Assembly (NCBI RefSeq): GCF_001429285.1
Contig: NZ_LMJJ01000014.1
Span: forward strand, 1 to 64,000
DNA: 64,000 nt
Source of the DNA: Ensifer sp. Root278
Lineage (GTDB): Bacteria; Pseudomonadota; Alphaproteobacteria; Rhizobiales; Rhizobiaceae
Direction: 5' to 3'
Shown in pieces: positions 27,291 to 47,427 of this stretch. Below the pieces are notes generated by a model, which was not told the DNA's origin, did no database searches, and was given only the letters and a program-made list of their open reading frames with translations. Position 1 is the stretch's first letter. The number at the start of each line of letters is the position of its first letter. Made by a program: the position numbers and the translations under genes.

Positions 27291-27384
27291 GGCCCACCGA
27301 AAAAAGTACAAGTCATTTTGCCATTCTGTCCATGGCGGCCAATGATTTCAACGCCTAGCCTTGACGAAACTCAAGGAGGAGAAA

Positions 27385-28947
27385 ATGAGAGCAGAGGATT
27401 TCCGCGCCGACAGGACGCGGCCCTTCACCGGCGCCGAATATCTGGAAAGCCTGCGCGACGGCCGCGAGGTCTATATCAACGGCGAACGCATCAAGGACGT
27501 GACCAGCCATCCGGCGATGCGCAATTCCACCCGGTCGCTCGCCAGGCTCTATGACGCGCTGCATGATCCGGCAAAGAGGGACATCCTGACGGCGCCGACC
27601 GACACGGGCTCCGGCGGCTACACCCACAAATATTTCCGCGTCGCCCGCTCCTCCGCCGATCTTGCCGCCCAGCAGGGCGCGATCGCCGAATGGGCACGCA
27701 TGTCCTATGGCTGGATGGGCCGCACCGCCGACTACAAGGCGGCGCTGATGAACACGCTCGGCGCCAATGCCAATTGGTATGGCCCGTTCAAGGACAACGC
27801 GCTCGCCTGGCATAAACGCGCCCAGGAAGCGGCGCTCTTCATGAACCACGCGATCGTCAATCCGCCGATCGATCGGCACAAGCCGGCGGACGCGGTCAAG
27901 GACGTCTTCGTCCACATCACCAAGGAAACGGACGCCGGCATCTACGTCTCAGGTGCCAAGGTGGTCGCGACCTCCTCGGCACTGACGCACTACAATTTCC
28001 TGGCGCAAAGTTCGGCGACGGTAACGGAGGATCCCTCGCTCTCGGTGATGTTCATCGTTCCGATGAACGCGCCCGGGATCAAGATGTTCTGCCGCGTCTC
28101 CTACGAGCAGACAGCCAACACCGTCGGCCATCCCTTCGACTATCCGCTGTCGTCGCGCTTCGACGAGAACGATGCGATCCTGGTGCTCGACAACGTCTTC
28201 GTGCCGTGGGAGGACGTCCTGGTCTTGCGCGATGCCGCCAAGATCCTCTCCTTCCACCCGGCTTCCGGCTTCATGCACGGCTACTGCTTCCAGGGCTGCA
28301 CCCGTTTCGCCGTGAAACTCGACTTCCTGGCAGGCCTGCTTGCCAAGGCGCTGCGCGCCACCGGCGGCGACGCCTTCCGCGGCAATCAGGCAGCACTCGG
28401 CGAGGTGATCGCGCTCCGCCACATGTTCTGGAGCTTCTCCAATGCCATGGCCCACAATCCCATTCCTTGGGCCGACGGCGCCGTGCTTCCCAATCTGGAA
28501 GCCGCGCTTTCCTATCGAACCTTCATGTCGGAGGCCTATCCGCGTGTCGTCGAGACGATCCGCAAGGTGATTGCATCGGGGCTGATCTACCTGCCGTCCT
28601 CCGTGCGTGACTTCGGCAATCCCGAGATCGACCGCTACCTGGCGCAATATGTCCGCGGCTCTAACGATATGGGGCACATCGAGCGCATCAAGATCATGAA
28701 ACTGCTCTGGGACGCGACCGGCACGGAGTTCGGCGGACGCCACGCGCTCTACGAACTCAACTATGCCGGCGCGCCTGAAGAGGTTCGGCTGCAGGTATTG
28801 AAAGGGGCCGAACGCGGCGGGCGTCTCAAGGAGATGGAAGCGCTCGTCGACCAGTGCATGGCGGACTATGACGAGAACGGCTGGACCGGCAGCACCTGGC
28901 TGCCGCCGCTCGACGATGCGTCCGCTCTGCGCAACGCCGCCGAATGA
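27385..28947 (+). CDS. hpaB: 4-hydroxyphenylacetate 3-monooxygenase, oxygenase component
   Basis: The 520-residue protein has the standard HpaB length and features: the N-terminal FTGAEYLESLRDGREVYINGERI, GSGGYTHKYFRVARS, the flavin/substrate region THYNFLAQ and the late VRGSNDMGHIERIKIMKLLWDATGTEFGGRHALYE. It uses FADH2 and oxygen to turn 4-hydroxyphenylacetate into 3,4-dihydroxyphenylacetate (homoprotocatechuate). An AAGGAGG site precedes the ATG at 27385. The reductase gene hpaC follows with a short gap, and the ring-cleavage genes lie 12 kb further on at 41-48 kb. Confidence 0.95.
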   Translation: MRAEDFRADRTRPFTGAEYLESLRDGREVYINGERIKDVTSHPAMRNSTRSLARLYDALHDPAKRDILTAPTDTGSGGYTHKYFRVARSSADLAAQQGAIAEWARMSYGWMGRTADYKAALMNTLGANANWYGPFKDNALAWHKRAQEAALFMNHAIVNPPIDRHKPADAVKDVFVHITKETDAGIYVSGAKVVATSSALTHYNFLAQSSATVTEDPSLSVMFIVPMNAPGIKMFCRVSYEQTANTVGHPFDYPLSSRFDENDAILVLDNVFVPWEDVLVLRDAAKILSFHPASGFMHGYCFQGCTRFAVKLDFLAGLLAKALRATGGDAFRGNQAALGEVIALRHMFWSFSNAMAHNPIPWADGAVLPNLEAALSYRTFMSEAYPRVVETIRKVIASGLIYLPSSVRDFGNPEIDRYLAQYVRGSNDMGHIERIKIMKLLWDATGTEFGGRHALYELNYAGAPEEVRLQVLKGAERGGRLKEMEALVDQCMADYDENGWTGSTWLPPLDDASALRNAAE

Positions 28948-28955
28948 GGCCCGTC

Positions 28956-29468
28956 ATGGAACCGCTCGTTTCGAAGACGGAGTTTCGCAACGCCATGGCG
29001 CGGGTCTGCGCGCCGGTCAACGTCATCACCACCAACGGACCCGCCGGACGCGGCGGGTTCACCGCCACCGCCATGTGCTCGGTGACCGACGAGCCGCCGA
29101 CGCTGCTCGTCTGCATGAACCGCAACTCCACCCAATGCGGCCTTTTCATCGACAACCGGCGCTTCTGCGTCAACGTGCTCAGCCACGACCATAGGGATCT
29201 CGCCGGCCACTTCGCCGGCGCGACGCAGGATATGGCGGCCCGCTATGCCGCGGCCGACTGGGTCGAGATGCAATCCGGCAGCTTCGCGGTCAAAGACGCC
29301 ATCGTCTCGCTCGACTGCGAACTCGCCGAGGCGCGGCTGCTTGGAACACACCACATCCTCATCGGCCGGGTCGTCGGCATCCGCTCGCGCAGCGACGGCA
29401 ATGCGCTGCTCTATTTCGATCGCAACTACGTGCATGTACCGACGCAGCTCGGAAGTTTCGGCGGCTAG
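28956..29468 (+). CDS. hpaC: Flavin reductase component of 4-hydroxyphenylacetate 3-monooxygenase
   Basis: The protein has 170 residues and a flavin-reductase split-barrel fold, with the family stretches VCAPVNVITTNG, FTATAMCSVTDEPPTLLVCMNR and FCVNVLSHDHRDLAGHFAG, and a closing DRNYVHV. It supplies reduced flavin to HpaB from NADH. The start at 28956 has GAGG six bases upstream; an alternative ATG at 28944 overlaps the hpaB stop. A GC-rich hairpin follows the stop. Confidence 0.92.
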   Translation: MEPLVSKTEFRNAMARVCAPVNVITTNGPAGRGGFTATAMCSVTDEPPTLLVCMNRNSTQCGLFIDNRRFCVNVLSHDHRDLAGHFAGATQDMAARYAAADWVEMQSGSFAVKDAIVSLDCELAEARLLGTHHILIGRVVGIRSRSDGNALLYFDRNYVHVPTQLGSFGG

Positions 29469-30933: not shown

Positions 30934-32412
30934 TCAGAGCTGAATCCAGGCGGTCTTCAGATCGGTGTATTTGTCCAGCGCGTGCAACGACTTGTCGTGG
31001 CCGTTGCCCGATTGCCTGACGCCGCCGAGCGGCACCGTGTTGTCGGCGCCGCCATAGGTATTGACGTGCACGACGCCGGCGCGGATGCCGCGCACCATCC
31101 GGTGCGCGCGCGACAGGTTTGCGGTCCAGACTGCGGAAGCCAGCCCGTAGTCCGTCGCATTGGCGATCCGGAGTGCGTCGGCATCGTCGTCGAAGGGAAT
31201 GATTGCAAGTACCGGCCCGAAGACCTCTTCCTTCGCCAGCTTCATTTCAGGCTGAATGTCGAAGACGGTCGGCTGCATGTAATAGCCGCCAGTCTCTTCA
31301 AGGATGCGCTTGCCGCCCCAACGCAGGCGCGCGCCTTCCACTTCCGCTTCACGGACGAAATCGAGGTTCTTGCTCAGCTGGACGCTGCTCGAAATCGCTC
31401 CAGCCTCGGTCGAAAGAAGCAGCGGATCGCCAACCTTCATACCTGCCGCGATCGCTGCCACCTTCTCCGCGAAGGCTTCGTGAATGGAGCGCTCGACCAG
31501 CAACCGTGAACCGGCAACACAGACCTGGCCGGAGTTGCGGAAGATGCCATAGGCCGAGATGCGCGCGGCCTGATCGAGATCCGGCGCATCGGCGAAGACG
31601 ACGTTCGGCGACTTGCCGCCGAGTTCGAGATAGACGCGTTTCAGGTTCGAGCGTGCCGAATATTCGAGCAGCCGGCGGCCGACACCGCCCGAGCCGGTGA
31701 AGGCGAGCACGTCGATATCTCCATGCAGCCCGATAGCCTCACCCGTCGTCGCACCCAGGCCGGTCACAACATTCAGAACGCCCTCCGGCAGGCCGGCTTC
31801 GGCGCAGATTTCGGCGAGCCTGAGCAAGCTGAGCGAGGCGCCCTCCGCCGGCTTCAGCACCACGGAATTGCCGGCGGCGAGCGCCGGCGCGATCTTCCAG
31901 GCGCCGATCATCAAAGGGAAATTCCAGGGAACGATCGCGGCGACCACGCCGATCGGTTCGCGATGCACGAGGCCGAGAATGTTGTCGGCGGTCGGCGCGA
32001 TTTCGCCATAGACCTTGTCGAGCGCCTCGGCATAGTAGCGGAAGGTTCCGGCGGCGCTGCCAGGCTCGGCCTTCAGCGCCATCGAAATTTCGGTGCCATT
32101 GTCGCGCACGCCAAGGACCGCAAGCTCCAGCGCCTGCGCTTCGATGATTTCGGCAATGCGCGTCAGCACCTTCTTGCGGAACGCCGGAGCCGCCTTCGAC
32201 CAGCTTCCTTTTTCGAAAACGGCGCGCGCGGCACGGACCGCCGCGTCGACGTCGGATGCGCCCGCGTCTGCTATCGTCGTCAGGTGGCTGCCGTCGATCG
32301 GCGAGACGACGTCGAGCGTTTCGCCGGACAAGCTCTCCTGCCAGTGGCCGTTGATGAACAGCTTTTGGCCCTCGACGGCGAGGCTACGCAATTGGTCGAT
32401 CTTGTCCTGCAT
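30934..32412 (-). CDS. PuuC-type aldehyde dehydrogenase
   Basis: The 492-residue NAD(P)-dependent aldehyde dehydrogenase has the oxyanion and cofactor blocks VPWNFPLMIGAWK, FTGSGGVGRR, the catalytic Glu in LELGGKSPN and the catalytic Cys in SGQVCVAGSR. The C-terminus SGNGHDKSLHALDKYTDLKT closely resembles E. coli PuuC (gamma-glutamyl-aminobutyraldehyde dehydrogenase). The start at 32412 has GGGAG nine bases upstream. It follows the APC permease on the same strand and is divergent from the aminotransferase and kinase cluster, so it may oxidise the aldehyde formed there. 4-Hydroxyphenylacetaldehyde, given the nearby hpa genes, is another candidate. Confidence 0.85.
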   Translation of the reverse strand: MQDKIDQLRSLAVEGQKLFINGHWQESLSGETLDVVSPIDGSHLTTIADAGASDVDAAVRAARAVFEKGSWSKAAPAFRKKVLTRIAEIIEAQALELAVLGVRDNGTEISMALKAEPGSAAGTFRYYAEALDKVYGEIAPTADNILGLVHREPIGVVAAIVPWNFPLMIGAWKIAPALAAGNSVVLKPAEGASLSLLRLAEICAEAGLPEGVLNVVTGLGATTGEAIGLHGDIDVLAFTGSGGVGRRLLEYSARSNLKRVYLELGGKSPNVVFADAPDLDQAARISAYGIFRNSGQVCVAGSRLLVERSIHEAFAEKVAAIAAGMKVGDPLLLSTEAGAISSSVQLSKNLDFVREAEVEGARLRWGGKRILEETGGYYMQPTVFDIQPEMKLAKEEVFGPVLAIIPFDDDADALRIANATDYGLASAVWTANLSRAHRMVRGIRAGVVHVNTYGGADNTVPLGGVRQSGNGHDKSLHALDKYTDLKTAWIQL

Positions 32413-32529
32413 GATGTCTGCTCCCGTTTGCATTGCCGGGACGGCGGAGGGTCCGCCATCCCTTCTTAGGTGATACGCAGTTCCGGACGGAAGCCGCTTG
32501 GCGTCGTTCCGGGAACTGCGTGGCAGCGA

Positions 32530-33981
32530 TCAGATCTCCTGGCCTGCGCCAAGGCGGGCGAACTCGATCGGATTGCCCGACTTCAGCGATGCCGCAAGCG
32601 CCAGACCGATAACACCGAAGATCACGACAAGGCCCGGCAGGAACACGGCGAGCATGCCGGTGGCGCCTGCCAGGTCACCGAAGTTGACCGCAATTGCGAT
32701 GATGACGGCAACGAGGATCAGGCCGGTGACGACGGGAATGACTTTGGTCACCAGCGGGTTCCGTTCGAGGCCGGGATTGCGGCTGAAGAAGGCGACGATC
32801 GCGAAGGCGGTGAAGGCCATCAACGTCATGACGGCGAGCGTGCCGACATTCGTCAGCCACGAGAACAGCGCCAGCACCGGATCCTGACCCGTTGCCGCAA
32901 AGAGTGCCACGACGAGGACGGCGATCACGGTCTGGATCAGCGAGCCGACATGCGGGCTGTGGTAGACCGGATGGGTGACGCCGATCGAGGCGGGCAGCAG
33001 CCGTTCGCGGCCGGCGACGTAGAGATAACGGGCGACGCCGTTGTGGAAGGCCAGAACACCGGCAAAGAGGCTGGTGACGAAGAGCACGTTCATCAGCGGC
33101 GGCAGCCAGCCGCCGGCATAACGCTCGGCGAGGCCGAAGAGGAAAGTGGTCGGATCGGCAAGGCCCTGCAGTTCCGGCACCAGCTTGTCGGCGCCGGCGG
33201 CGTTCACCATCAGCCAGGAGGTGAACATGTAGAAAACGCCGATGATCAGCACCGAGATATAGGTGGCGCGCGGCACCGTCCTTGCCGGATCGCGGGCCTC
33301 CTCGCTGTAAATCGTCGTCGCCTCGAAGCCGATGAAGGCGGCAAAGCAGAAGAGAATGCCGATCGACGGCGAGCCGGACAGAACGGCCGAAGGCGTAAAC
33401 GACGTCATCGTCAGCCCGCTGTCGCCGCCCTTGGCAAGGATCGCCACGTCAATGACGAGCACGACAAGATATTCGAGGATGACGAGAACCGTCAGCACCT
33501 TGGCGGAGAGGTCGACGCGGCGATAGCCGAGAACGCCGACGGCGGCGATGCCCACGAACGTCCAGACCCACCAGGGTAGATCGACCCCCAGACCAGCGAA
33601 GAGCCCGGCGGTCGCCGCCCCGAACAGGCCGAAGACGCCGATCTGCATGGCGTTGTAAGCAAGGATCGCGATCATCGCCGCGGCACCGCCCATCAGGCCA
33701 CCGAGGCCCTGGGCCGTATAGGCGTAGAAGGCGCCGGCATTGCGGATATGCCGTGCCATGGCGACATAGCCGACGGAAAACAACAGCAGGATCAGCGTGA
33801 CGAGCAGGAAGGTGCCGGGAATGCCGGCGCCGTTTCCAAGCATCATCGACAACGGCACGCCGCCGGCGACCGCGGTCAGCGGTGCGGCAGCGGATACGAC
33901 AAGAAAGGTGACCGCGCCGACGCCAAGGGCGTTCTTGCGCAACTGGTTCGCGCCGGTCACGGGCGAAGATGGATTGTCCAT
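32530..33981 (-). CDS. APC-family amino acid or amine permease
   Basis: The protein has 483 residues and about twelve membrane segments. The APC signature AAAPLTAVAGGVPL in segment 1 and GFEATTIYSEEARDPARTVPRATY in the middle place it with amino acid/polyamine permeases. An N-terminal cytoplasmic tail precedes segment 1. It is divergent from the IclR-led cluster and 117 bases upstream of the PuuC-like gene on the same strand. I read it as the uptake system for the amine or amino acid that the divergent aminotransferases and kinase act on. Specificity is not readable. Confidence 0.9.
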   Translation of the reverse strand: MDNPSSPVTGANQLRKNALGVGAVTFLVVSAAAPLTAVAGGVPLSMMLGNGAGIPGTFLLVTLILLLFSVGYVAMARHIRNAGAFYAYTAQGLGGLMGGAAAMIAILAYNAMQIGVFGLFGAATAGLFAGLGVDLPWWVWTFVGIAAVGVLGYRRVDLSAKVLTVLVILEYLVVLVIDVAILAKGGDSGLTMTSFTPSAVLSGSPSIGILFCFAAFIGFEATTIYSEEARDPARTVPRATYISVLIIGVFYMFTSWLMVNAAGADKLVPELQGLADPTTFLFGLAERYAGGWLPPLMNVLFVTSLFAGVLAFHNGVARYLYVAGRERLLPASIGVTHPVYHSPHVGSLIQTVIAVLVVALFAATGQDPVLALFSWLTNVGTLAVMTLMAFTAFAIVAFFSRNPGLERNPLVTKVIPVVTGLILVAVIIAIAVNFGDLAGATGMLAVFLPGLVVIFGVIGLALAASLKSGNPIEFARLGAGQEI

Positions 33982-34276
33982 AGTCTTAGGCTCCCCTGGT
34001 TGGCGCGAACGCCTTTTCGCCTCCGGTCCTTCTCTCCGGAAGCAGCTCCCTGAAGCGGACTGGAAGCGCGGGGGTTTGCTTTTTTCTTGGCCGCGCAAGT
34101 CTTTCGGTTCAATATATGAACCTTAGCTTCAAATATAGACTTGCAAATTGCGTTCGGCCCTGTCAAGTTATTTCGCATGTTAAGTATCTCAGCTGGAGAC
34201 AATGAGGGCGGCCGCACCGCCCCATGGCGGGAACAGGCGGAGATGACTTGCGACGGCGCTCAACGAGGAGGAATGG
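33982..34276. promoter_or_regulatory. Divergent promoter region of APC permease and IclR cluster
   Basis: The 295-base spacer contains no gene. An inverted repeat GGTTCA-ATATA-TGAACC at 34106-34122, followed by an AT-rich stretch with a second TTCAAATATA half-site, is the best operator candidate. IclR-family regulators commonly bind this size of palindrome. A strong ribosome site (GAGGAGG) precedes the IclR start. Confidence 0.55.
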
Positions 34277-35059
34277 ATGAGCACCATCGGTAAGGCCCTA
34301 ACTTTGCTCGACACGATCTCGCGCCTGGAGAAGGAAGCGGGCTTGAGTGACATCGCGCGGCACTGCGGGCTCGACAAGGCGACCACCCGGCGCTTTCTGG
34401 TCGAACTGGAGAAACACGGTTTCGTTGAACAGGATCCGGAAACGCGGCGCTATCGCCTCGGCGGCGCGCCGGTGCGCCTTGCCCGCATCCGCGAGACGCG
34501 CTTCCCCTATCTGAGCGTGGCGACCCCCTTCGCCCGGGAGCTTGCGAGCCTAGCGGGCGAGACCGTTCACCTTTCTGAATACGCCGCCGGCCGCCTTTCG
34601 ACTGTTCATGTGGAGGACTCGCAGCGGGCCCACCGCGTCATCGTCGATGTCGGGAGCATCCTGCCTTTCCACGCGACCGCGTCCGGCCTTGGCTTCCTTG
34701 CCTTCTGCCCGCCGAAGGACATCGACGCGGTCCTGTCGGCGCCGCTCGAGGCCTTTACCGATCAGACGCTGACGGACCCCGCAATCCTGCGCCAGACCCT
34801 GAGCGAGACTCTCCGGCGCGGCTACTCGATCTGCCATCACGGGCTCGAAACCGGAGTCGTCAGTGTCGCCGCACCGATCCGCGCGCCAGGCAGCACACCG
34901 GTCGGCGCGATCGCCGTCGCCGCCCCGGCAACGCGGGCGGAGAAGGAGACGGTGGAGCAGATGGGCCGCGCCGCGATGACAGCGGCCAGACGCATTTCCG
35001 AAAGACTTTTCGGGTTGGAGCAGGTTGCTGCCGATCCGCTGGCAAGGAGGGCCGGCTGA
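34277..35059 (+). CDS. IclR-family transcriptional regulator
   Basis: The protein has 260 residues. The N-terminal winged helix (AGLSDIARHCGLDKATTRRFLVELEKHGFVEQD) is followed by the IclR effector domain (VHLSEYAAGRLSTVHVEDSQR, LPFHATASGLGFLAF, and the late VSVAAPIRAPGSTPVGAIAVAAP). It heads a six-gene rightward run: its stop overlaps the Tm-1-like gene by 1 base, and nearly every later junction is within a few bases. It probably responds to the substrate of that pathway and also controls the divergent permease. Confidence 0.9.
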   Translation: MSTIGKALTLLDTISRLEKEAGLSDIARHCGLDKATTRRFLVELEKHGFVEQDPETRRYRLGGAPVRLARIRETRFPYLSVATPFARELASLAGETVHLSEYAAGRLSTVHVEDSQRAHRVIVDVGSILPFHATASGLGFLAFCPPKDIDAVLSAPLEAFTDQTLTDPAILRQTLSETLRRGYSICHHGLETGVVSVAAPIRAPGSTPVGAIAVAAPATRAEKETVEQMGRAAMTAARRISERLFGLEQVAADPLARRAG

Positions 35060-36312
35060 TGAATGCAATGAACCGTCTCCCCAACATTCTTGTCGTGGGT
35101 ACGGGAGACACCAAATGCGACGAACTCCAGTTCATGGCGTCCGTCATCCGCGAAGCCGGCGGCCTGCCCGTGATGATGGATGTCAGCATTCTCGGTGATC
35201 CGCCCTATGTGCCCGAATACTCGCGCCATGACATCGCCGAAGCCGCGGGTGTCACCATTGAAGCGATTGCGGCCAGCGGCGACGAACACAGCGCCATGGC
35301 GCTGATGGCAAGTGGTGCTTCTGCCCTCACCCGTTCCCTTTACGAAGCCGGCCAGGCCGATGGCGTCATCATTCTCGGCGGCTCGATGGGCACGGATCTC
35401 GCCCTCGACGTCGCCGCGGCCCTGCCGCTCGGCGTGCCGAAATTCATCGTCTCGACCATCGCCTATTCGCACCTGCTGCCGCCCGAGCGCATTGCGCCCG
35501 ACCTGATGATGATCCTGTGGGCCGGCGGCCTCTACGGCCTCAACGGCATCTGCCGCTCGGTTCTCTCCCAGGCCTGTGGCGCGGTCGTTGGTGCCGCACG
35601 TTTCGGCACCAGGCCGGACAAGACGCGGCCGCTGATTGGCATGACCTCGCTCGGCTCGAGCTGCCTCAAATACATGAAATACCTGAAGCCCGAACTCGAA
35701 CGCCGCGGCTATGACGTCGCTGTCTTCCATTCGACCGGCATGGGCGGCCGCGCCTTCGAGGCGATCGCGGCTGAGAAGGGCTTTACCGCGGTTTTCGACT
35801 TCTGCATTCAGGAGGTCAGCAACCATCACCACGGAACTGTCGTCACATCAGGGCCCGACCGGCTGGAGAATGCCGGACGTGCCGGAATCCCACAGATCGT
35901 CGCGCCAGGCGCCGTCGACATGGTCGACCTGCCGGCCTGGCAACCGATTCCGCAGGCCTTTGCCGATCGCCCCTATCACGCCCACAACCGGCTGCTCGGC
36001 TCGGTGACCACATCTTCCGAGGGACGACGCGAGATCGCCCGCGTCATCGGCGGCAAATTGAACGGCACCAGTGCCGAGGTCGCCTTCATCCTGCCGCTCA
36101 AGGGGATTCAGGAATGGGACCAGCCTGACGAGCCTCTCTACGAACCGGAAGCGCTCGACGCCTTCATCGACGAGATGCGCCGGCAGATCCCCTCAGGCGT
36201 CGCCCTGCATGAGGTCGACAGCCACATCAATGCGCCGGCGTTCTCGCAAGCCGCGCTTGCGATCTTCGACGACTGGGTGGCGCGTGGCATCGTGCCCGAG
36301 GGCCGGCCATGA
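35059..36312 (+). CDS. Tm-1-like ATP-binding family protein (UPF0261)
   Basis: The protein has 417 residues. The N-terminal half is typical of UPF0261/Tm-1: VVGTGDTKCDELQFM, GGSMGTDLALDVAAALPLGVPKFIVST. The second half continues with GMTSLGSSCLKYMKYLKPELERRGYDVAVFHSTGMGGRAFE and a closing DSHINAPAFSQAAL. Tomato Tm-1 is known to bind ATP, but bacterial homologues have no established reaction. It lies between the regulator (1-base overlap) and a HAD hydrolase (4-base overlap), so it is a structural part of this catabolic unit rather than a stray gene. Confidence 0.85.
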   Translation: MNAMNRLPNILVVGTGDTKCDELQFMASVIREAGGLPVMMDVSILGDPPYVPEYSRHDIAEAAGVTIEAIAASGDEHSAMALMASGASALTRSLYEAGQADGVIILGGSMGTDLALDVAAALPLGVPKFIVSTIAYSHLLPPERIAPDLMMILWAGGLYGLNGICRSVLSQACGAVVGAARFGTRPDKTRPLIGMTSLGSSCLKYMKYLKPELERRGYDVAVFHSTGMGGRAFEAIAAEKGFTAVFDFCIQEVSNHHHGTVVTSGPDRLENAGRAGIPQIVAPGAVDMVDLPAWQPIPQAFADRPYHAHNRLLGSVTTSSEGRREIARVIGGKLNGTSAEVAFILPLKGIQEWDQPDEPLYEPEALDAFIDEMRRQIPSGVALHEVDSHINAPAFSQAALAIFDDWVARGIVPEGRP

Positions 36313-36995
36313 CGAACACTATGCCCGACACCATGAGCGACAAGGCACTGATCCTCGATTTCGGCGGCGTCGTCACCCGCACGCTGTTCGAAACCCACGA
36401 CATCACGGAGCGTGCGCTCGGGCTCGCGCCCGGCACTCTTACGTGGCGCGGTCCCTTCGACCCCGCAACCGACCCGCTCTGGGCCGCCATGCAGCGGCGC
36501 GAAATCACCGAACGGGACTACTGGACGGAACGCACCCGCGAAGTCGGCCGCCTGCTTGGCGAAGACTGGAGCGACATGAAAACCTTCGTGCAGCGGGCGC
36601 GTGGGGCGGAACCGGAACTGGTGCTCCGGCCCGAGACGCGCGACGCGATCCTCGCCGCCCATAAGGCCGGCATTCGGCTCGCGATCCTCTCCAATGAACT
36701 CGACCTCTTCTATGGCGTCGCGTTCCGTCAGCGCTTCCCGCTGATCGAGCTCTTCGAGACGATCGTCGACGCCACCTACACCAACATCCTGAAGCCCGAT
36801 CCGCACGCCTACGAGCTGGTGCTGAGCCAGCTTGGCCTGCCGCGCGAAGCCTGCGTCTTCGTGGATGACCAGTTGAAGAACATCGAGGGTGCGCGGGCCG
36901 TCGGCCTGCCTCACGTCCATTTCGACGTCACCCGACCCGCAGAAAGCTACGCCAGAGCGCTTCAGATGCTCGGCCTCGAACTGACAGGAGCATGA
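36309..36995 (+). CDS. HAD-superfamily hydrolase (subfamily IA)
   Basis: The protein has 228 residues. Motif I is DFGGV, so only the nucleophilic Asp is present and the second acid of DxD is replaced by Gly, as in dehalogenase or epoxide-hydrolase-N-domain-like members. Motif II is LAILSNE, the Lys is in NILKPDP, and the acidic motif is CVFVDDQLKNIEGA. The enzyme could hydrolyse a small phosphate ester. The first ATG overlaps the upstream stop; a second in-frame ATG lies four codons on. In a cluster with a kinase and a phospho-lyase-like enzyme, removal of a misdirected phosphate is a plausible role. Confidence 0.82.
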   Translation: MTNTMPDTMSDKALILDFGGVVTRTLFETHDITERALGLAPGTLTWRGPFDPATDPLWAAMQRREITERDYWTERTREVGRLLGEDWSDMKTFVQRARGAEPELVLRPETRDAILAAHKAGIRLAILSNELDLFYGVAFRQRFPLIELFETIVDATYTNILKPDPHAYELVLSQLGLPREACVFVDDQLKNIEGARAVGLPHVHFDVTRPAESYARALQMLGLELTGA

Positions 36996-36997
36996 CC

Positions 36998-38353
36998 ATG
37001 CGCGAAACCAACTTCCTCATCGAGAACAACGCCCGCCACCTCTGGCACCCGATGGCGCATCCGGCCGAGATGCAGGCAACGCCACCGCGCATCATCAATG
37101 CCGGCGAAGGTGTCGAGATCGTCGACATCCATGGCAAGAAGGTGCTCGATGCGGTCGGCGGCCTCTGGAACGTCAATCTCGGCTATTCCTGCGAACCGGT
37201 GAAGGAGGCGATCCGTCGCCAGCTCGACGAGCTGCCCTATTACTCGACGTTTCGCGGCACCACCAACTCACCGCTGATCGAGCTTTCCTACGAGCTCGCC
37301 GAATGGTTCCGCGAGGATGGGCTGACGCGCTCGTTCTTCACCTCGGGCGGTTCCGACTCCGTCGAGACCTGCCTTCGCCTCGCCCGCCAGTACCACAAGC
37401 TCAACGGCCAGCCGGAACGCACCAAGTTCGTCGCGCTGAAGAAGGGCTACCACGGCACCCATTTCGGCGGCGCCTCGGTCAATGGCAATGCCAATTTCCG
37501 CCGCAACTACGAGCCGCTGCTGCCGGGCGTCTACCACCTGCCGGCGCCCTATACCTATCGCAACCCCTTCGACACGACCGATGGCGCCGTAATCGCCAAG
37601 GCGATCGCGCGGCTCTTCGAAGACGAGATCGCCTTCCAGGGCGCCGACACGATCGCGGCGCTGATCATGGAGCCGGTGCTCGGCGCCGGCGGCGTGATCG
37701 TGCCGCACGAAATCTTCATGCCGCTGATGCGCGAGATCTGCGACCGCCACGGCATCCTCCTGATCGCCGACGAGGTGATCACCGCGTTCGGCCGCACCGG
37801 TGCCTGGACCGGCTCGCGTCTCTTTGGCGTGAAGCCGGATTTCATGTCGACCGCCAAGGCGATCACCAATGGCTACTATCCCTTCGGCGCCGTGATGATC
37901 TCGGACAAGGTTGCCGAGGCTTTCGAAAGCAACAAGACGGCTGCCGGTTCGATCGGCCATGGCTACACCTATTCCGGCCATCCGGTGGGTGCTGCGGCAG
38001 CACTCGCAACCCTGAAGGAAACGCGCAAGCACAATGTCGCTGCAAATGCCAAGGCACGCGGCGATGAGCTGATCGCCGGCCTCGAAGCGCTGAAGGCCCG
38101 GCACGAACTGATCGGCGACGTGCGCGGCAAGGGGCTGATGTGCGCGATCGAGCTCGTCTCGGACAGGGAGAAGAAGGCCGGTGCCGCAAAGGATGTCGTC
38201 CAGAAGGTTCAGGACGTGACCTATGATGCCGGCGTCATGGTGCGCACATCCGGCGCCAACGTCATCCTGTCGCCGCCGCTGATCGTGACCGCAGGCGACG
38301 TCGCCCGTATCCTCACGGCCCTCGACGCCGGCCTGACCGCAGCACGGGGCTAG
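36998..38353 (+). CDS. Class III omega-aminotransferase
   Basis: The protein has 451 residues and PLP fold type I. The motifs are WHPMAHP, the phosphate-binding SGGSDSVET, the aspartate block LLIADEVITAFGRTG, and the PLP lysine Lys287 in STAKAITNGYYPFGAV. It belongs with beta-alanine/omega-amino acid-pyruvate and diamine transaminases, which move a terminal amino group to pyruvate. The start at 36998 has AGGAG seven bases upstream; the ATG two codons earlier is too close. It overlaps nothing and is followed 4 bases later by a second class III enzyme of a different branch. Confidence 0.87.
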   Translation: MRETNFLIENNARHLWHPMAHPAEMQATPPRIINAGEGVEIVDIHGKKVLDAVGGLWNVNLGYSCEPVKEAIRRQLDELPYYSTFRGTTNSPLIELSYELAEWFREDGLTRSFFTSGGSDSVETCLRLARQYHKLNGQPERTKFVALKKGYHGTHFGGASVNGNANFRRNYEPLLPGVYHLPAPYTYRNPFDTTDGAVIAKAIARLFEDEIAFQGADTIAALIMEPVLGAGGVIVPHEIFMPLMREICDRHGILLIADEVITAFGRTGAWTGSRLFGVKPDFMSTAKAITNGYYPFGAVMISDKVAEAFESNKTAAGSIGHGYTYSGHPVGAAAALATLKETRKHNVAANAKARGDELIAGLEALKARHELIGDVRGKGLMCAIELVSDREKKAGAAKDVVQKVQDVTYDAGVMVRTSGANVILSPPLIVTAGDVARILTALDAGLTAARG

Positions 38354-38357
38354 CGCG

Positions 38358-39641
38358 ATGGGCGACAACCGGGACCTGATTGCGCGCCGCGAGCGGCTGC
38401 TCGGGCGCAACATGTCGCTGTTCTACGAGGAGCCGGTGCATCTCGTGCGTGGCGAAGGCGTTTGGCTTTTTGATGCTGACGGCCGCCGCTACCTAGACTG
38501 CTACAACAACGTACCGCATGTCGGCCATTGCCATCCGCGGGTGACCGAGGCGATCGCCCGGCAGGCCTCAACCCTCAACACCCACACCCGCTATCTGCAT
38601 GAAGGCATTCTCGACTATGTCGAGCGTCTGACCGCCACCTTCGACAACAGCCTCGACACGGCGATCCTGACCTGCACCGGCAGCGAGGCGAACGACGTGG
38701 CGCTGCGCATGGCCCAGGCCGTGACCGGCAAGACCGGGGTGATCGCCACCGACCACACTTATCACGGCAATACCGCCGCCGTTTCTCAGCTTTCGACCCG
38801 GATGCCGCCGGTCGGCGGCTTCGGCGGCCATGTCCGCCACGTGCCGGCGCCCGACAGCTACCGGCCGCTTGGCGGCGAGCCGGGCGCCGCTTTTGCCGCG
38901 GCCTTCACCGCCAAGGTCGAGGAAGCGATCGCCTCGCTGCAGCAAAGCCCGCACGGCTTCGCCGCGCTGATCATCGATCCCTTCTTCGCCAACGAAGGAT
39001 TTCCGGAACTGCCCTCCGGCTTTCTCGACGGCGCCGTCGCCGCCGTCAGAAAGGCAGGCGGGCTCCTGATAGCCGACGAAGTGCAGCCGGGCTTCGGCCG
39101 AACCGGCGGCCATATGTGGGGGCACCAGAAGGCGGGCATCGTTCCCGATATCGTCACGCTTGGAAAGCCGATGGGCAACGGCCACCCGATCGGCGGCGTC
39201 GTTGCGGGCACCGAAACGCTCAACGCCTTCCGCAAAGCGTTTCGCTACTTCAACACTTTCGGCGGCAATCCGGTCTCCTGCGCAGCGGCCATGGCCGTGC
39301 TCGATGTGATCGCAGACGAAAACCTCATCGAGAACGCCGCCCAAGTCGGCGCCTATGCCAAGGCCGGCCTCGCGCGGCTTGCGGACAAACATGGAATGAT
39401 CGGCGACATCAGGGGCAGCGGACTATTCTTCGGCGCGGAGCTCGTCACCGATCGCGCGGAAAAAACGCCAGCAAGCGCGCTCGCGACCAAGGTGATCAAC
39501 GACATGAGCGAGCGCGGCGTGCTGATGGGCAAGCTCGGCATCCACCAGTGCACGACCAAGATCCGACCGCCGATGCCCTTTACCCGCGACAATGCGGATT
39601 TGATGCTGTCGACGCTCGACGACGTGCTTTCGGGCCTATGA
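38358..39641 (+). CDS. Class III PLP enzyme of the AGXT2L (phospho-lyase) branch
   Basis: The protein has 427 residues. Although aminotransferase-like, it matches the AGXT2L1/AGXT2L2 branch (ethanolamine-phosphate and 5-phosphohydroxylysine phospho-lyases) in several blocks: CYNNVPHVGHCHPRVTEAI, RYLHEGILDYVERLTATF, ADEVQPGFGRTG, and the PLP Lys273 in GKPMGNGHPIGGV, then FNTFGGNPVSCAAAMAVLDVI. Those enzymes eliminate phosphate and ammonia from a phosphorylated amino alcohol to give an aldehyde. The gene is followed 7 bases later by an APH-family kinase, the natural partner. Simple aminotransferase activity cannot be excluded without assay. Confidence 0.82.
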   Translation: MGDNRDLIARRERLLGRNMSLFYEEPVHLVRGEGVWLFDADGRRYLDCYNNVPHVGHCHPRVTEAIARQASTLNTHTRYLHEGILDYVERLTATFDNSLDTAILTCTGSEANDVALRMAQAVTGKTGVIATDHTYHGNTAAVSQLSTRMPPVGGFGGHVRHVPAPDSYRPLGGEPGAAFAAAFTAKVEEAIASLQQSPHGFAALIIDPFFANEGFPELPSGFLDGAVAAVRKAGGLLIADEVQPGFGRTGGHMWGHQKAGIVPDIVTLGKPMGNGHPIGGVVAGTETLNAFRKAFRYFNTFGGNPVSCAAAMAVLDVIADENLIENAAQVGAYAKAGLARLADKHGMIGDIRGSGLFFGAELVTDRAEKTPASALATKVINDMSERGVLMGKLGIHQCTTKIRPPMPFTRDNADLMLSTLDDVLSGL

Positions 39642-39648
39642 GCGACTG

Positions 39649-40659
39649 ATGACGGCGGACCTGCCCAAACCCTTTCGCGACGCGCTCGACAACCGGGCGT
39701 GCCAGGCACTTGCCCATTGGGGCGTTGCTGACCAAGAGCCGGAGTTGCTGAAGTACCGGGAAAACGCCGTGTTTCGCGTCCACCTGGCCGATGGTCGCCC
39801 GGCGGCGCTGCGGCTGCACCGCGCCGGCTATCACAGTGCGGCGGCACTGCACTCGGAACTGCAATGGATGGCAGCACTCGGCAACAGCGGTCTCGCGGTG
39901 CCGCAACCGATCGCGACGACGGACGGGCGCTTACTTGTCGCCCTGCCTGAAGGTGGCGCGTTTGCCGCACAGCATGCCGATGTGATCAACTGGATGGATG
40001 GAGAGCCATTGGGCGAAAGCGGTAAACCGCTGTCCCACTCACCCGAGAGGCTCGTCGAGATCTTCTCGGCGCTCGGCGCCTCCATGGCCGAGATGCATAA
40101 CCTCGCCGATCGCTGGACGCCGACCGAGGGCTTTTGGCGTCCGACTTGGGATGAGGAAGGCCTGCTTGGGGATCGTCCGTTGTGGGGGCGCTTCTGGGAT
40201 TGCGAGGGCCTATCGCCGGCCCAAGCCATGGCGCTATCGGCTTTGCGCGGTGACCTCAGGCGGCGCCTCGCAACTCTGCCGACTCCGGCTAAGGATTTCG
40301 GCCTCATCCATGCGGACCTCGTTCGGGAAAATGTGCTGGTCGGCGAGGCGGGCGTCAAACTCATCGACTTCGACGATGCTGGCTGGGGTTACCGCCTGTT
40401 CGATATCGCCACCGCCCTGCTGAAGAACCGACGCGAGCCGGCCTATGGAGCGATCGAGGCGGCGTTGATATCAGGCTATCGCAGCCGGCGCGCGCTCAGC
40501 GCCGAGATGCTGTCCAGCCTGCCGCTGTTTCTTGTGCTTCGCAGTCTCACCTATATCGGCTGGTTCTCGGCGCGGCCGGAACTGCCGGGCGCCCGCGAGC
40601 GTGTTCTGCGCTACGCCGACGAGGCGCTGGCGCTTACCAAAGAGCTGGGCTTCACATGA
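39649..40659 (+). CDS. APH-family small-molecule kinase (hydroxylysine kinase-like)
   Basis: The protein has 336 residues and a protein-kinase-like aminoglycoside phosphotransferase fold. It shows the catalytic loop IHADLVRENVL (Asp in HAD, Asn after) and the metal motif LIDFDDAGWGYRLFDIA. Relatives phosphorylate small hydroxylated metabolites: homoserine, choline, hydroxylysine. It is the last gene of the IclR-led unit, directly after an AGXT2L-type phospho-lyase-like gene. In animals and some bacteria hydroxylysine kinase and phosphohydroxylysine phospho-lyase act as a pair, so this is the best reading. Antibiotic resistance is unlikely in this setting. Confidence 0.82.
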   Translation: MTADLPKPFRDALDNRACQALAHWGVADQEPELLKYRENAVFRVHLADGRPAALRLHRAGYHSAAALHSELQWMAALGNSGLAVPQPIATTDGRLLVALPEGGAFAAQHADVINWMDGEPLGESGKPLSHSPERLVEIFSALGASMAEMHNLADRWTPTEGFWRPTWDEEGLLGDRPLWGRFWDCEGLSPAQAMALSALRGDLRRRLATLPTPAKDFGLIHADLVRENVLVGEAGVKLIDFDDAGWGYRLFDIATALLKNRREPAYGAIEAALISGYRSRRALSAEMLSSLPLFLVLRSLTYIGWFSARPELPGARERVLRYADEALALTKELGFT

Positions 40660-41276: not shown

Positions 41277-41669
41277 ATGCCGCACCTGACAATCGAATAC
41301 TCAGGCAATCTCGACGACCGCGTCGACTTCGCCCGGCTTTGCCGGACCGTCCACAAGACGATCCTCGGCACCGGCCTTTTCGAGCTCGGCGCCGTCAGGG
41401 TGCGCACGATCCGCAGCGCCGATTACGCGATCGCCGACCTTTTGCCGGACAACAGCTTCATCGACATGTCCTTCCGCATCGGTCGCGGCCGCAGCGAGGC
41501 AGAGAAGAAGGCCACCGGCGAAGCCATCTTCAAGGCCGTGAGCGACGAACTTTCGGAGCTTTTCGCCACACCGCATTTTGCTCTCAGCCTGGAGATCCGC
41601 GAGATCGACCCGGATCTGAGCTGGAAGAAAAACGCCATTCACCCCCGGCTGCGCGCCACCAAAGGCTAG
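41277..41669 (+). CDS. hpaF: 5-carboxymethyl-2-hydroxymuconate delta-isomerase
   Basis: The protein has 130 residues and a tautomerase fold. Pro2, exposed after removal of the initiator Met (MPHLTIEYSGNL), is the expected catalytic base. The stretches DYAIADLLPDNSFIDMSFRIGRGRSEAEKK and the ending DLSWKKNAIHPRLR are typical of CHM isomerase. It isomerises 5-carboxymethyl-2-hydroxymuconate to 5-oxo-pent-3-ene-1,2,5-tricarboxylate in 4-hydroxyphenylacetate breakdown. A GGGAGGAAAG site precedes the ATG. It is the first gene of the meta-cleavage operon. Confidence 0.93.
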   Translation: MPHLTIEYSGNLDDRVDFARLCRTVHKTILGTGLFELGAVRVRTIRSADYAIADLLPDNSFIDMSFRIGRGRSEAEKKATGEAIFKAVSDELSELFATPHFALSLEIREIDPDLSWKKNAIHPRLRATKG

Positions 41670-41732: not shown

Positions 41733-43250
41733 ATGTCCAAGCTCGATGAAAACCTCGCCAAGGCGGAAAGCTACCTCGCCCGCTTCAAGAGCGAAGGCGT
41801 GCTCAATCACATCAACGGCGAAGCGATGCCGGCACTTGACGGTGAGACTTTCGAAACGATTTCGCCCGTTGACCTGAAACCGCTTGCGAAGATCGCCCGC
41901 GGCAAGGCTGCCGACATCGACCGGGCGGCAAAGGCCGCGAAAGCTGCTTTCGCCGAATGGGCCGCTATGCCCGGCGAAACGCGCAAGAAACTGCTGCACA
42001 AGATTGCCGACGCGATCGTTGCCCGCGCCGAAGAGATCGCCTTTGTCGAGTGCATGGACACCGGACAACCGCTGAAATTCATGGCCAAGGCGGCGTTGCG
42101 CGGTGCCGAGAACTTCCGCTTTTTCGCCGACCGGGCGCCTGAAGCGCGCGACGGCAAGGTGCTGCGTGGCGGCAATCAGATCAACATGACGACACGCGTG
42201 CCGATCGGCCCGGTCGGTATCATCACCCCCTGGAACACGCCGTTCATGCTGTCGACCTGGAAGATTGCGCCTGCGCTTGCCGCCGGCTGCACGGTCGTGC
42301 ACAAGCCGGCGGAATTCTCGCCGCTGACGGCGCGGCTGCTGGTCGAGATCGCCGAGGAAGCCGGCCTGCCGAAGGGCGTGTGGAACCTCGTCAACGGCTT
42401 CGGCGAGGATGCCGGACGCGCACTCACCGAGCACCCCGACATCAAGGCGATCGGCTTCGTCGGCGAAAGCCGCACCGGCTCGATGATCATGAAGCAGGGT
42501 GCCGAGACGCTGAAGCGGGTTCATTTCGAACTCGGCGGCAAGAACCCGGTGATCGTCTTTGCCGATGCCGATCTCGAGCGCGCCGCCGATGCGGCGGTCT
42601 TCATGATCTACTCGCTGAACGGCGAACGCTGCACCTCGTCCTCACGCCTGCTGGTCGAGGACAGCATCTACGAACGCTTCACCGGGCTCGTCGCCGAAAA
42701 GGCGAAACGCATCAAGGTCGGCCATCCGCTCGATCCGGAAACCGTCGTCGGCCCGCTCATCCATCCGGTGCATGAGAAGAAGGTATTCGACTATATCCGC
42801 ATCGGCCGAGAGGAAGGTGCTACTGTTGCCGCCGGCGGCGAGAAGTTCGCGGGGCCTGGCGGTGGCTGCTACGTCACCCCGACGCTCTTCACCGGCGCCA
42901 ACAACCGCATGCGCATCGCCCAGGAGGAAATCTTCGGGCCAGTACTGACGGCGATCCCGTTCAAGGACGAGGCAGACGCGCTGGCGCTTGCCAATGACGT
43001 ACAATATGGCCTCACCGGTTATCTCTGGACCTCCGACGTCACCCGCGCCTTCCGCTTTACCGATCACCTCGAAGCCGGGATGATCTGGGTAAACTCGGAG
43101 AACGTGCGCCACCTGCCGACGCCGTTTGGCGGCGTCAAGAGCTCGGGCATCGGCCGCGACGGCGGCGACTGGTCGTTCGATTTTTATATGGAAACCAAGA
43201 ACATCGCCTTTGCCAGCTCGGCGCATGCGATCGCCAAGCTTGGCGGTTGA
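41733..43250 (+). CDS. hpaE: 5-carboxymethyl-2-hydroxymuconate semialdehyde dehydrogenase
   Basis: The 505-residue NAD-dependent aldehyde dehydrogenase has TPWNTPFMLSTWKIAPALAAGCTVVHKPAE, the catalytic Glu in FELGGKNPV and the Cys in NGERCTSSSR. The Thr-Ser-Ser after the Cys and the N-terminus (LNHINGEAMPALDGETFETISPVD) agree with HpaE. It oxidises the ring-opened semialdehyde made by HpaD to the dicarboxylate that HpaF uses. A GGAGAACACC site lies upstream. It sits between hpaF and hpaD in the order usual for this pathway. Confidence 0.93.
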   Translation: MSKLDENLAKAESYLARFKSEGVLNHINGEAMPALDGETFETISPVDLKPLAKIARGKAADIDRAAKAAKAAFAEWAAMPGETRKKLLHKIADAIVARAEEIAFVECMDTGQPLKFMAKAALRGAENFRFFADRAPEARDGKVLRGGNQINMTTRVPIGPVGIITPWNTPFMLSTWKIAPALAAGCTVVHKPAEFSPLTARLLVEIAEEAGLPKGVWNLVNGFGEDAGRALTEHPDIKAIGFVGESRTGSMIMKQGAETLKRVHFELGGKNPVIVFADADLERAADAAVFMIYSLNGERCTSSSRLLVEDSIYERFTGLVAEKAKRIKVGHPLDPETVVGPLIHPVHEKKVFDYIRIGREEGATVAAGGEKFAGPGGGCYVTPTLFTGANNRMRIAQEEIFGPVLTAIPFKDEADALALANDVQYGLTGYLWTSDVTRAFRFTDHLEAGMIWVNSENVRHLPTPFGGVKSSGIGRDGGDWSFDFYMETKNIAFASSAHAIAKLGG

Positions 43251-46623: not shown

Positions 46624-47427
46624 ATGCTCGACAAGATCCAGATCGAGGCGGCAGCGACCGCCCTCGACACCGCCGAGCGCGAGCGCGTCCAGACCGGACT
46701 ACTCTCGCTCAAGCACCCCGAGATGACCATGGACGATGCCTATGCGGTGCAGGCCGCGTGGATAAGGCAGAAGATTGCCGCGGGCCGGCGGGTGATCGGC
46801 TGGAAGATCGGCCTTACCTCCAAGGCGATGCAATATGCGCTCAACATCGACATTCCCGATTCCGGCGTGCTGTTCGACGACATGCTGTTCGAGGACGGTG
46901 CGCGCATCCCCGGCACCCGCTTCATCCAGCCGCGCATCGAGGCCGAGATCGCGTTCGTGATGAAGGCGCCGCTTACCGGTCCCAACGTCACGGTTTTCGA
47001 CGTGCTGAATGCGACGGATTACGTGACGCCGGCGCTCGAAATCCTCGACACCCGCATCCTGCGCGTCGATCCGGAAACCAAGAAGGCACGCACCATCGTC
47101 GATACCATCTCCGATAACGCCGCCAATGCCGGCATCGTGCTCGGCGGCCGGCAGATGCGGCCCGACGCGGTCGACATGCGCTGGATGGGCGCAATCGTCT
47201 CACGCAACGCCGAGGTGGAGGAGACGGGGCTCGGCGCTGGCGTGCTCAACCATCCGGCCCGCGGCATCGCCTGGCTCGCCAATCGTCTCTCGCTTTACGG
47301 GGACCGGCTCGAGGCCGGCCAGATCGTGCTTGCCGGTTCCTTCATCCGCCCGGTCGAGGCCCGCCATGGCGATACCATCGTCGCCGATTTCGGACCATCC
47401 GGCACCGTCAGCTGCTTCTTCGAATAG
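46624..47427 (+). CDS. hpaH: 2-oxo-hept-4-ene-1,7-dioate hydratase
   Basis: The protein has 267 residues and belongs to the hydratase/decarboxylase family related to MhpD. Marks are [52 protein letters not shown] and SGTVSCFFE at the end. It adds water to 2-oxo-hept-4-ene-1,7-dioate to give 2,4-dihydroxy-hept-2-ene-1,7-dioate, the substrate of HpaI. Gene order hpaG-hpaH-hpaI, with 3- and 8-base gaps, is standard. Confidence 0.93.

What the first reader, a model, noticed from the sequence alone, without database searches (positions are those of the whole stretch)
30934..40659. Hydroxylated-amine catabolic cluster pairing an APH-family kinase with an AGXT2L-type phospho-lyase
The final two genes of the IclR-led unit match the kinase/phospho-lyase pair known from hydroxylysine and ethanolamine-phosphate metabolism. 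An omega-aminotransferase, a HAD hydrolase, a Tm-1-like protein, an APC permease and a PuuC-type aldehyde dehydrogenase complete a coherent route: uptake, phosphorylation, elimination to an aldehyde, oxidation. I know of no bacterial pathway described with this full set.
Basis: inference. Interest (0 to 1): 0.75.

Follow-up and report, generated by a model that had tools for sequence, protein, structure and literature searches.

The report
Kinase–lyase route for aromatic hydroxy-amines
A soil bacterium carries a kinase and a phosphate-removing lyase inside its gene cluster for degrading 4-hydroxyphenylacetate, which suggests, without proof yet, that it eats octopamine- or noradrenaline-like amines by a kinase-and-lyase route.

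Summary
The last two are an APH-fold kinase and a class III PLP enzyme whose nearest solved relatives are two phospho-lyases. In the window's genus (Ensifer) the kinase and HpaE occur in the same 13 of 16 genomes. A kinase tree has two clades. In the window's clade 26 of 52 rows lie near hpa or paa (phenylacetate) genes; in the clade holding the Mycobacterium aminopropanol kinase, 0 of 43 do. The linkage recurs in differently arranged loci of distant bacteria. I infer that the pair degrades β-hydroxy-arylethylamines (octopamine, noradrenaline; phenylethanolamine in paa-linked relatives): phosphorylate the β-hydroxyl, eliminate phosphate and ammonia to an arylacetaldehyde, oxidise to an arylacetate, then open the ring. 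The ω-aminotransferase plus decarboxylase would add a tyrosine/tyramine branch. No substrate was tested. Hydroxylysine is unlikely; ethanolamine or aminopropanol remains possible.

The parts
26412..27311 (-). AraC-family regulator beside hpaB
   Evidence: 51-60% identical to regulators beside hpaB in five related loci (L053, L055, L068-L070); no NCBIfam model at 1e-60
27361..28947 (+). HpaB-like 4-hydroxyphenylacetate 3-monooxygenase, oxygenase component
   Evidence: TIGR02310 763.6 bits, below its cut-off of 885.2
28944..29468 (+). HpaC-like flavin reductase
   Evidence: overlaps hpaB; 77% identical to the annotated flavin reductase after hpaB in Rhizobium sp. Pop5
30934..32433 (-). aldehyde dehydrogenase, proposed arylacetaldehyde dehydrogenase
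   Evidence: PF00171; best NCBIfam PuuC 566 bits (cut-off 850), next StyD phenylacetaldehyde dehydrogenase 450 (cut-off 800); role inferred
32530..34098 (-). APC-family permease, proposed amine importer
   Evidence: PF13520; substrate inferred
34277..35059 (+). IclR-family regulator
   Evidence: PF01614 and PF09339
35059..36312 (+). UPF0261 (Tm-1-like) protein, function unknown
   Evidence: NF002676 707.9 bits, above cut-off
36309..36995 (+). HAD-IA family hydrolase, role unknown (perhaps clearing dead-end phosphates)
   Evidence: TIGR01509 above cut-off; role is a guess
36992..38353 (+). class III omega-aminotransferase, proposed tyramine/dopamine aminotransferase
   Evidence: NF005683 767 bits, above cut-off; best PDB 6s54 and 5lh9; lacks the phospho-lyase motifs; substrate inferred
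38358..39641 (+). PLP-dependent amino-alcohol-phosphate phospho-lyase
   Evidence: 5g4i 425 bits, 6tor 361 bits; motif alignment; conserved residues
39649..40659 (+). APH-fold amino-alcohol kinase, clade A
   Evidence: PF01636; 6ef6 160 bits; clade tree; clade-specific residues
40680..41168 (-). HpaR regulator
   Evidence: TIGR02337 175 bits, above cut-off
41277..41669 (+). HpaF, 5-carboxymethyl-2-hydroxymuconate isomerase
   Evidence: ORF; genus relatives at the same place are 66-72% identical to the annotated HpaF of Rhizobium sp. Pop5
41733..43250 (+). HpaE
   Evidence: TIGR02299 787 bits, above cut-off
43284..44264 (+). HpaD, homoprotocatechuate 2,3-dioxygenase
   Evidence: TIGR02295 425 bits, above cut-off
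44318..45754 (+). aromatic L-amino acid decarboxylase
   Evidence: best PDB 7xin DOPA decarboxylase 369 bits, then AADC and tyrosine decarboxylases; the catalytic-loop Tyr (PEYLK) is kept, read by eye against the recalled DDC sequence; start chosen by me
45751..46620 (+). HpaG-like fumarylacetoacetate hydrolase family protein
   Evidence: 82% identical to the gene so annotated in the Rhizobium sp. Pop5 hpa cluster; no NCBIfam model at 1e-60
46624..47427 (+). HpaH
   Evidence: TIGR02312 450 bits, above cut-off
47436..48248 (+). HpaI
   Evidence: TIGR02311 414 bits, above cut-off

Best explanation
The kinase and phospho-lyase form a funnel for β-hydroxy-arylethylamines (octopamine, noradrenaline and kin) into the homoprotocatechuate pathway. 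Shown by homology: an APH-fold amino-alcohol-type kinase, an AGXT2L/A1RDF1-type phospho-lyase, an aldehyde dehydrogenase, an APC permease, and an hpa cluster around them. Inferred: (1) the APC permease imports the amine; (2) the kinase phosphorylates the side-chain (benzylic) hydroxyl with ATP; (3) the PLP enzyme forms an aldimine on the primary amine, eliminates the β-phosphate, and the enamine hydrolyses to arylacetaldehyde and ammonia; (4) the ALDH gives 4-hydroxyphenylacetate or homoprotocatechuate; (5) HpaBC and HpaD-E-F-G-H-I finish the job. The ω-aminotransferase would feed the same aldehyde pool from tyramine or dopamine, which the aromatic amino acid decarboxylase could make. IclR and HpaR would regulate. 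The roles of the HAD and UPF0261 proteins are unknown.
For: Physical nesting in hpa. Kinase and HpaE occur in exactly the same 13 of 16 Ensifer genomes, side by side in each. In Rhizobium sp. Pop5 the kinase is followed after 53 bases by hpaF, then hpaE and hpaD. Kinase tree: hpa or paa genes in the fetched stretch (mostly 10-14 kb to a side) at 26 of 52 clade-A rows against 0 of 43 clade-B rows (two clade-A pairs are the same locus fetched twice, so 25 of 50 distinct; Fisher 3.5e-9 on the rows, not corrected for relatedness; 7 parsimony changes). Enlarged, partly biased set with a looser identity limit (35% instead of 40%): 43 of 103 against 0 of 46, 13 changes. In the samples drawn without regard to context, 9 of 27 clade-A genomes outside the genus are linked within about 12 kb: 8 hpa, 1 paa. 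Arrangements differ: inverted in a Mesorhizobium clade, hpaI beside the lyase in G731 (L082), other orders in Pseudosulfitobacter, Phaeobacter and Marinobacterium. paa genes adjoin the pair in Mesorhizobium AR07, G205 and Pseudomonas insulae, as expected if the aldehyde is phenylacetaldehyde. Amine neighbours: tyramine oxidase in Phyllobacterium, an amine dehydrogenase heavy chain in a Woeseiaceae MAG, AADC in Shinella, Phaeobacter and S. fredii. Kinase positions such as L273 against W and V225 against R separate the clades almost completely. Wild-type A. baumannii HpaBC does not hydroxylate octopamine (PMC10816480 passages), so the side chain would have to go first.
Against: No enzyme was assayed, and no structure or docking was done. 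About half of the clade-A rows have no hpa or paa gene in the fetched stretch: 26 of 52, 60 of 103. Six of 22 clade-A genomes outside the genus have neither HpaE nor PaaA at the limits used, and 5 of 34 clade-B genomes have one of them. Clade membership and taxonomy are partly confounded. In Pseudomonas taiwanensis the pair sits with a permease and an AraC regulator whose best models are ethanolamine permease and EutR, both below cut-off. A1RDF1, which groups with clade A in a quick tree on a long branch and shares clade-A residues at 54, 96, 213 and 307 of the lyase, is recalled to act on phosphoethanolamine. hpa linkage could reflect a shared plant-derived diet rather than a shared pathway. 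The hydroxyl phosphorylated and the stereochemistry are guesses.
Confidence: 0.62

Rival explanations
1. The pair degrades small aliphatic amino alcohols (ethanolamine, 1-amino-2-propanol): phosphorylation, elimination to acetaldehyde or propanal, oxidation. Its place in hpa is incidental or reflects co-inheritance on a catabolic replicon.
For: Closest solved relatives are 6ef6 (recalled as the M. smegmatis (S)-1-amino-2-propanol kinase; a paper of that title seen in a reference list) and the phospholyases 5g4i and 6tor. A clade-A pair in Pseudomonas taiwanensis sits with an ethanolamine-permease-like gene.
Against: 6ef6 lies in the other clade (100/99 support) and differs at near-fixed positions. 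hpa or paa neighbours were found in the window's clade only. Kinase and HpaE are present together in 13 and absent together in 3 of 16 Ensifer genomes.
Confidence: 0.2
2. Hydroxylysine route: kinase on 5-hydroxylysine, lyase on 5-phosphohydroxylysine giving 2-aminoadipate semialdehyde, then the ALDH.
For: The AGXT2L enzyme family includes a 5-phosphohydroxylysine phospho-lyase (reference title seen).
Against: Aromatic ring-cleavage neighbours. Long-frame paralogues are present in 16 of 16 Ensifer genomes and free to do this job.
Confidence: 0.05
3. The substrate is aromatic but not an arylethanolamine, for example another hydroxylated amine met together with tyramine; or the PLP enzyme eliminates another leaving group, as PbfA does.
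For: The context is aromatic and the substrate unproven. PbfA shows that class III enzymes vary in leaving group (PMC8154272 passages).
Against: The adjacent kinase makes a phosphate leaving group the simplest reading, and an arylethanolamine is the only simple amine I could think of that this chemistry turns straight into an arylacetaldehyde (inference).
Confidence: 0.12

Closest known systems
Aminoacetone/1-amino-2-propanol utilisation (RMM) loci of Mycobacterium and Rhodococcus
   Same: Phosphotransferase (amino-alcohol kinase), aminotransferase-type PLP enzyme, permease and aldehyde dehydrogenase
   Different: None of the eight cassette genes is named a shell protein or short-chain dehydrogenase; the kinase belongs to a separate clade; genes lie in an aromatic ring-cleavage cluster
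Hydroxylysine kinase with AGXT2L1/AGXT2L2 (ETNPPL, phosphohydroxylysine phospho-lyase)
   Same: Kinase plus phospho-lyase chemistry; 6tor is the second-best PDB match
   Different: Context and, by inference, substrate; 44% identical to 6tor over the aligned part
A1RDF1 phospholyase of Arthrobacter aurescens (5g4i)
   Same: Closest solved structure, 47% identical; groups with clade A (long branch) and shares several clade-A residues
   Different: Its genomic context was not examined; recalled to act on phosphoethanolamine
4-hydroxyphenylacetate/homoprotocatechuate (hpa) pathway
   Same: HpaR, E, D, H and I above model cut-offs; B, C, F and G by similarity
   Different: Carries an amine-processing cassette and an AADC that classical hpa clusters lack (recalled)
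Tyramine oxidase/FeaB and aromatic amine dehydrogenase routes (recalled)
   Same: Feed arylacetaldehydes into hpa or paa
   Different: Those oxidise the amine carbon directly; this route would use ATP and β-elimination to handle a β-hydroxyl group

Membership tests
Class III phospho-lyase (ETNPPL/A1RDF1) | Closest sequence relatives are phospho-lyases rather than transaminases | tested here: met
   425 and 361 bits against 210 for the next family in the PDB
Class III phospho-lyase (ETNPPL/A1RDF1) | PLP lysine and motifs shared by both reference enzymes | tested here: met
   K270, NNVPHVGH, GKPMGNGHP, YFNTFGGNPVS or close forms; the neighbouring omega-aminotransferase lacks them
Class III phospho-lyase (ETNPPL/A1RDF1) | Releases phosphate and ammonia without an amino acceptor | not testable with these tools
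   needs an assay
APH-fold amino-alcohol kinase | APH family with catalytic HxDxxxxN and DFD motifs | tested here: met
   PF01636; H221, D223, N228, D240-F-D242 kept in over 90% of both clades
(S)-1-amino-2-propanol kinase (6ef6) | Same clade as 6ef6 | tested here: not met
   100/99 split; clade-specific residues differ
(S)-1-amino-2-propanol kinase (6ef6) | Microcompartment shell genes nearby | not tested
   no shell-protein search was run; none of the window ORFs given to Pfam or NCBIfam was named as one
hpa pathway | HpaD, E, H, I and R above family cut-offs | tested here: met
hpa pathway | HpaB above the TIGR02310 cut-off | tested here: not met
   763.6 against 885.2 bits; similar, but equivalog status not granted
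PuuC aldehyde dehydrogenase | Above the PRK09847 cut-off | tested here: not met
   566 against 850 bits

The most novel reading that the evidence does not exclude
A widespread, genetically undescribed bacterial route breaks down octopamine, noradrenaline and other β-hydroxy-arylethylamines by ATP-dependent phosphorylation of the β-hydroxyl and PLP-dependent phospho-elimination to arylacetaldehydes. It has become linked repeatedly to the hpa and paa ring-degradation pathways.
Probability: 0.55. Interest if true: 0.75.

Novelty: new variant of a known kind. Interest (0 to 1): 0.62.

Why it matters
Octopamine, synephrine and noradrenaline are plant and animal signalling amines. An octopamine dehydratase activity (EC 4.2.1.87) was reported decades ago, to my knowledge without a gene (recalled, no call). 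If correct, this gives a testable gene set for bacterial removal of neuroactive amines, extends kinase/phospho-lyase chemistry from small amino alcohols to aryl ones, and offers residue signatures for re-annotating entries now called 'aminoglycoside phosphotransferase' or 'homoserine kinase'.

Tried and rejected
Hydroxylysine and homoserine as kinase substrates: NCBIfam homoserine kinase matches far below cut-off (44 of 271 bits), and the context argues against both. PuuC/putrescine reading of the ALDH: below cut-off. Plain transaminase reading of 38358-39641: rejected. Literature, ten searches: octopamine + kinase + phospholyase, 0 papers; aminopropanol + phospho-lyase + kinase, 0; PA4088/PA4090/PA4091, 0. 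In the listings (25 of 444 papers listed; 12 of 15; 4 of 4; 20 of 74) I saw no title or abstract on a bacterial octopamine kinase/lyase pathway; subscription journals are mostly not held. Searches gave microcompartment and ETNPPL papers. The recalled Pseudomonas aeruginosa PA4088-PA4091 lead was not confirmed.

Neighbours of some clade-A loci without hpa or paa were sampled by Pfam, a few ORFs each: L088 (6 ORFs; peptide-type ABC transporter parts), L086 (4) and L042 (2) gave nothing aromatic. Ten ORFs of Pseudomonas taiwanensis L138 and Halomonas L147 and others gave no ring-cleavage gene; six of these ORFs were from L138. No structure prediction or fold search was run: by their descriptions the tools return no coordinates for a pocket comparison.

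Rows dropped or doubled: only part of the weaker kinase matches was fetched (60 regions; the rest, most of them 30-36% identical, were placed in no tree). In some searches two clade-A pairs are the same locus twice (L030/L054, L075/L127). In one search, L174 and L187 were dropped as duplicates; L078/L205 and the two pairs above remain as doubles; L150 fell out because its kinase hit was short; 56 of the 80 loci gave a usable kinase. In one search ten PLP rows of other types or with long branches were left out. The 80 loci are the best of at least 588 and were found with an alignment that included aromatic-linked members, so they are not an unbiased sample. Marker limits were 40% identity and 35%, and the markers came from alphaproteobacteria, so divergent hpa or paa genes could be missed in either clade. 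No shuffle control was run for the parsimony counts.
Full report
What is there. The eight ORFs of the finding exist at the given places. Six of them (IclR, UPF0261/Tm-1-like, HAD, class III aminotransferase, class III phospho-lyase-like enzyme, APH kinase) run head to tail with overlaps or gaps of 4-7 bases; the aldehyde dehydrogenase and APC permease lie divergently upstream. The enzyme at 38358-39641 has its two best PDB matches in the phospho-lyases A1RDF1 (5g4i) and ETNPPL (6tor), with a wide gap to decarboxylases and transaminases, and carries their motifs, which the neighbouring aminotransferase lacks. The kinase's best PDB match is 6ef6, which the PDB names only 'aminoglycoside phosphotransferase'. 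That it is the Mycobacterium smegmatis (S)-1-amino-2-propanol kinase is recalled; a paper with that title was seen in a reference list.

The cassette is inserted in a homoprotocatechuate cluster. To the left lie an AraC regulator, HpaB-like and HpaC-like genes; to the right HpaR, HpaF, HpaE, HpaD, an aromatic amino acid decarboxylase, HpaG-like, HpaH and HpaI. HpaR, E, D, H and I exceed their curated cut-offs; HpaB does not (763.6 against 885.2 bits), so it is called HpaB-like.

Conservation in the genus. The window belongs to an Ensifer-like genome: its kinase is 78-82% identical to plasmid-borne copies in eight Ensifer records. Of 16 genomes of the genus, 13 have the kinase and the same 13 have HpaE above its cut-off. 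In all 13 the cassette and the hpa genes are side by side (for the 12 relatives, the window for the thirteenth). The three without the kinase have no HpaE.

Beyond the genus. In Rhizobium sp. Pop5 the kinase is followed by hpaF-hpaE-hpaD; in Agrobacterium CFBP7129 hpaR and hpaF-E-D follow after one small gene. Three Shinella loci carry the Tm-1/HAD/aminotransferase/lyase/kinase row with an AADC. In Pseudosulfitobacter the lyase-kinase pair lies next to hpaR (one gene between), with hpaF and hpaE within 11 kb. In Phyllobacterium it lies beside a tyramine oxidase and an aldehyde dehydrogenase. Marinobacterium rhizophilum, Sphingobium vermicomposti and Ruegeria arenilitoris have hpa genes nearby, and so do G1001 and G174; G174 is Phaeobacter porticola to judge by an identical kinase on a contig of the same length as its plasmid. 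A Woeseiaceae MAG has the pair with an amine-dehydrogenase heavy chain.

Tree. 95 kinases plus 6ef6 split with 100/99 support into clade A (52 rows, with the window) and clade B (43 rows plus 6ef6). hpa or paa genes (two or more markers at 40% identity or more in the fetched stretch, mostly 10-14 kb to a side) occur at 26 of 52 clade-A and 0 of 43 clade-B rows. Two clade-A pairs are one locus fetched twice, so the distinct count is 25 of 50. Fisher's test on the rows gives 3.5e-9, but related rows are not independent; parsimony needs 7 changes on that tree. A larger quick tree with 150 rows, which adds loci found with an alignment that included aromatic-linked members (so biased) and uses a 35% limit, gives 43 of 103 against 0 of 46, and 13 changes. 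In the samples drawn without regard to context, 9 of the 27 clade-A genomes outside the genus are linked within about 12 kb: G111, G182, G332, G910, G952, G731, G1001 and G174 to hpa, G205 to paa. My rough estimate by chance is well below one (about 1% of a genome lies that close to such a cluster; inference, no control was run). Whole-genome presence points the same way: HpaE or PaaA in 16 of 22 clade-A genomes against 5 of 34 clade-B genomes (taxonomy is a confounder). The lyase tree broadly mirrors the kinase tree. Clade-specific kinase residues are close to fixed: L273 (93 of 103; 43 of 43 linked rows) against W (47 of 47), V225 (85 of 103; 43 of 43 linked rows) against R (47 of 47), R309 (103 of 103) against H (43 of 47) (clade B here includes 6ef6).

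Mechanism. The documented class III lyases known to the authors of PMC8154272 in 2021 were ethanolamine-phosphate phospho-lyase, a closely related enzyme, and their own PbfA (passages). In phospho-lyase chemistry (established knowledge, recalled) the amine-bearing carbon becomes the aldehyde and the β-carbon loses its phosphate. An arylethanolamine phosphate would therefore give exactly the arylacetaldehyde that an ALDH turns into 4-hydroxyphenylacetate, homoprotocatechuate or phenylacetate. That explains why one clade of kinase/lyase pairs should sit beside hpa in some bacteria and paa in others. This step is inference. The wild-type HpaBC of A. baumannii does not act on octopamine (PMC10816480 passages), consistent with side-chain removal first. 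The ω-aminotransferase and AADC fit a parallel tyrosine-tyramine-aldehyde branch. The AADC keeps the loop tyrosine expected of a decarboxylase rather than an aldehyde synthase (read by eye against a recalled sequence).

Against. About half of clade A shows no such neighbour in the fetched stretch, six of 22 genomes lack both markers, and the Pseudomonas taiwanensis pair looks ethanolamine-like by permease and regulator, both below cut-off. A1RDF1, recalled as a phosphoethanolamine lyase, groups with clade A on a long branch and has clade-A residues at several positions. Substrate breadth may therefore be wide, and hpa linkage may mark one use among several. No assay, structure or docking backs the substrate.

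Verdict. The nearest known systems are the RMM aminopropanol route and the AGXT2L phospho-lyases. This would be a new variant of that chemistry joined to aromatic catabolism. I did not see it in print in the listings, in an open-licence library only and with lists that were partly capped. On checking this report against the calls I corrected the Pop5 spacing, the duplicate rows, the stretch lengths and the orientation of two paralogues; the odds did not change.

Noticed in passing
G000:C11:117136-118533 (L131:9137-10534): A second free-standing phospho-lyase-like gene (54-55% identical to the window's) lies near a GntR regulator, an ABC transporter with a family-8 binding protein and a zinc-type dehydrogenase; the only kinase match in this genome at 1e-20 is the window's own.
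   Followed up: partly
G000:C41:321134-324946 and G000:C23:103962-105233: Three long-frame (994-1154 aa) homologues of the lyase, two of them adjacent and convergent; the best NCBIfam match of the window lyase is the C-terminal part of a ~1000-aa family (PRK06148). Frames of 976 aa or more with the lyase occur in 16 of 16 Ensifer genomes.
   Followed up: no
window 35059-36312: The UPF0261/Tm-1-like gene travels with the kinase/lyase pair in several alphaproteobacterial loci even without hpa genes nearby (for example L059, L071, L189, L197); its function is unknown.
   Followed up: no
window 22377-26365: ABC transporter ATPase and two permeases followed by a family S58 peptidase; transporter and P1-peptidase genes also lie near the clade-B kinase on plasmid At of Agrobacterium C58.
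   Followed up: no
window 29609-30880: A protein with a GGDEF-like motif (read by eye, no family search) sits between hpaC and the cassette and is kept in some Ensifer relatives.
   Followed up: no
L170:6526-7983: A methylamine-dehydrogenase-type heavy chain (PF06433) beside a kinase/lyase pair in a Woeseiaceae MAG, suggesting a parallel amine oxidation route.
   Followed up: partly
L130:1-10037 (Moraxella osloensis plasmid): A clade-B kinase with two class III enzymes, an APC permease, a FabG-type dehydrogenase and CoA-acylating methylmalonate-semialdehyde dehydrogenase: looks like an aminopropanol-to-propionyl-CoA unit, with no shell gene among the annotated features shown.
   Followed up: no
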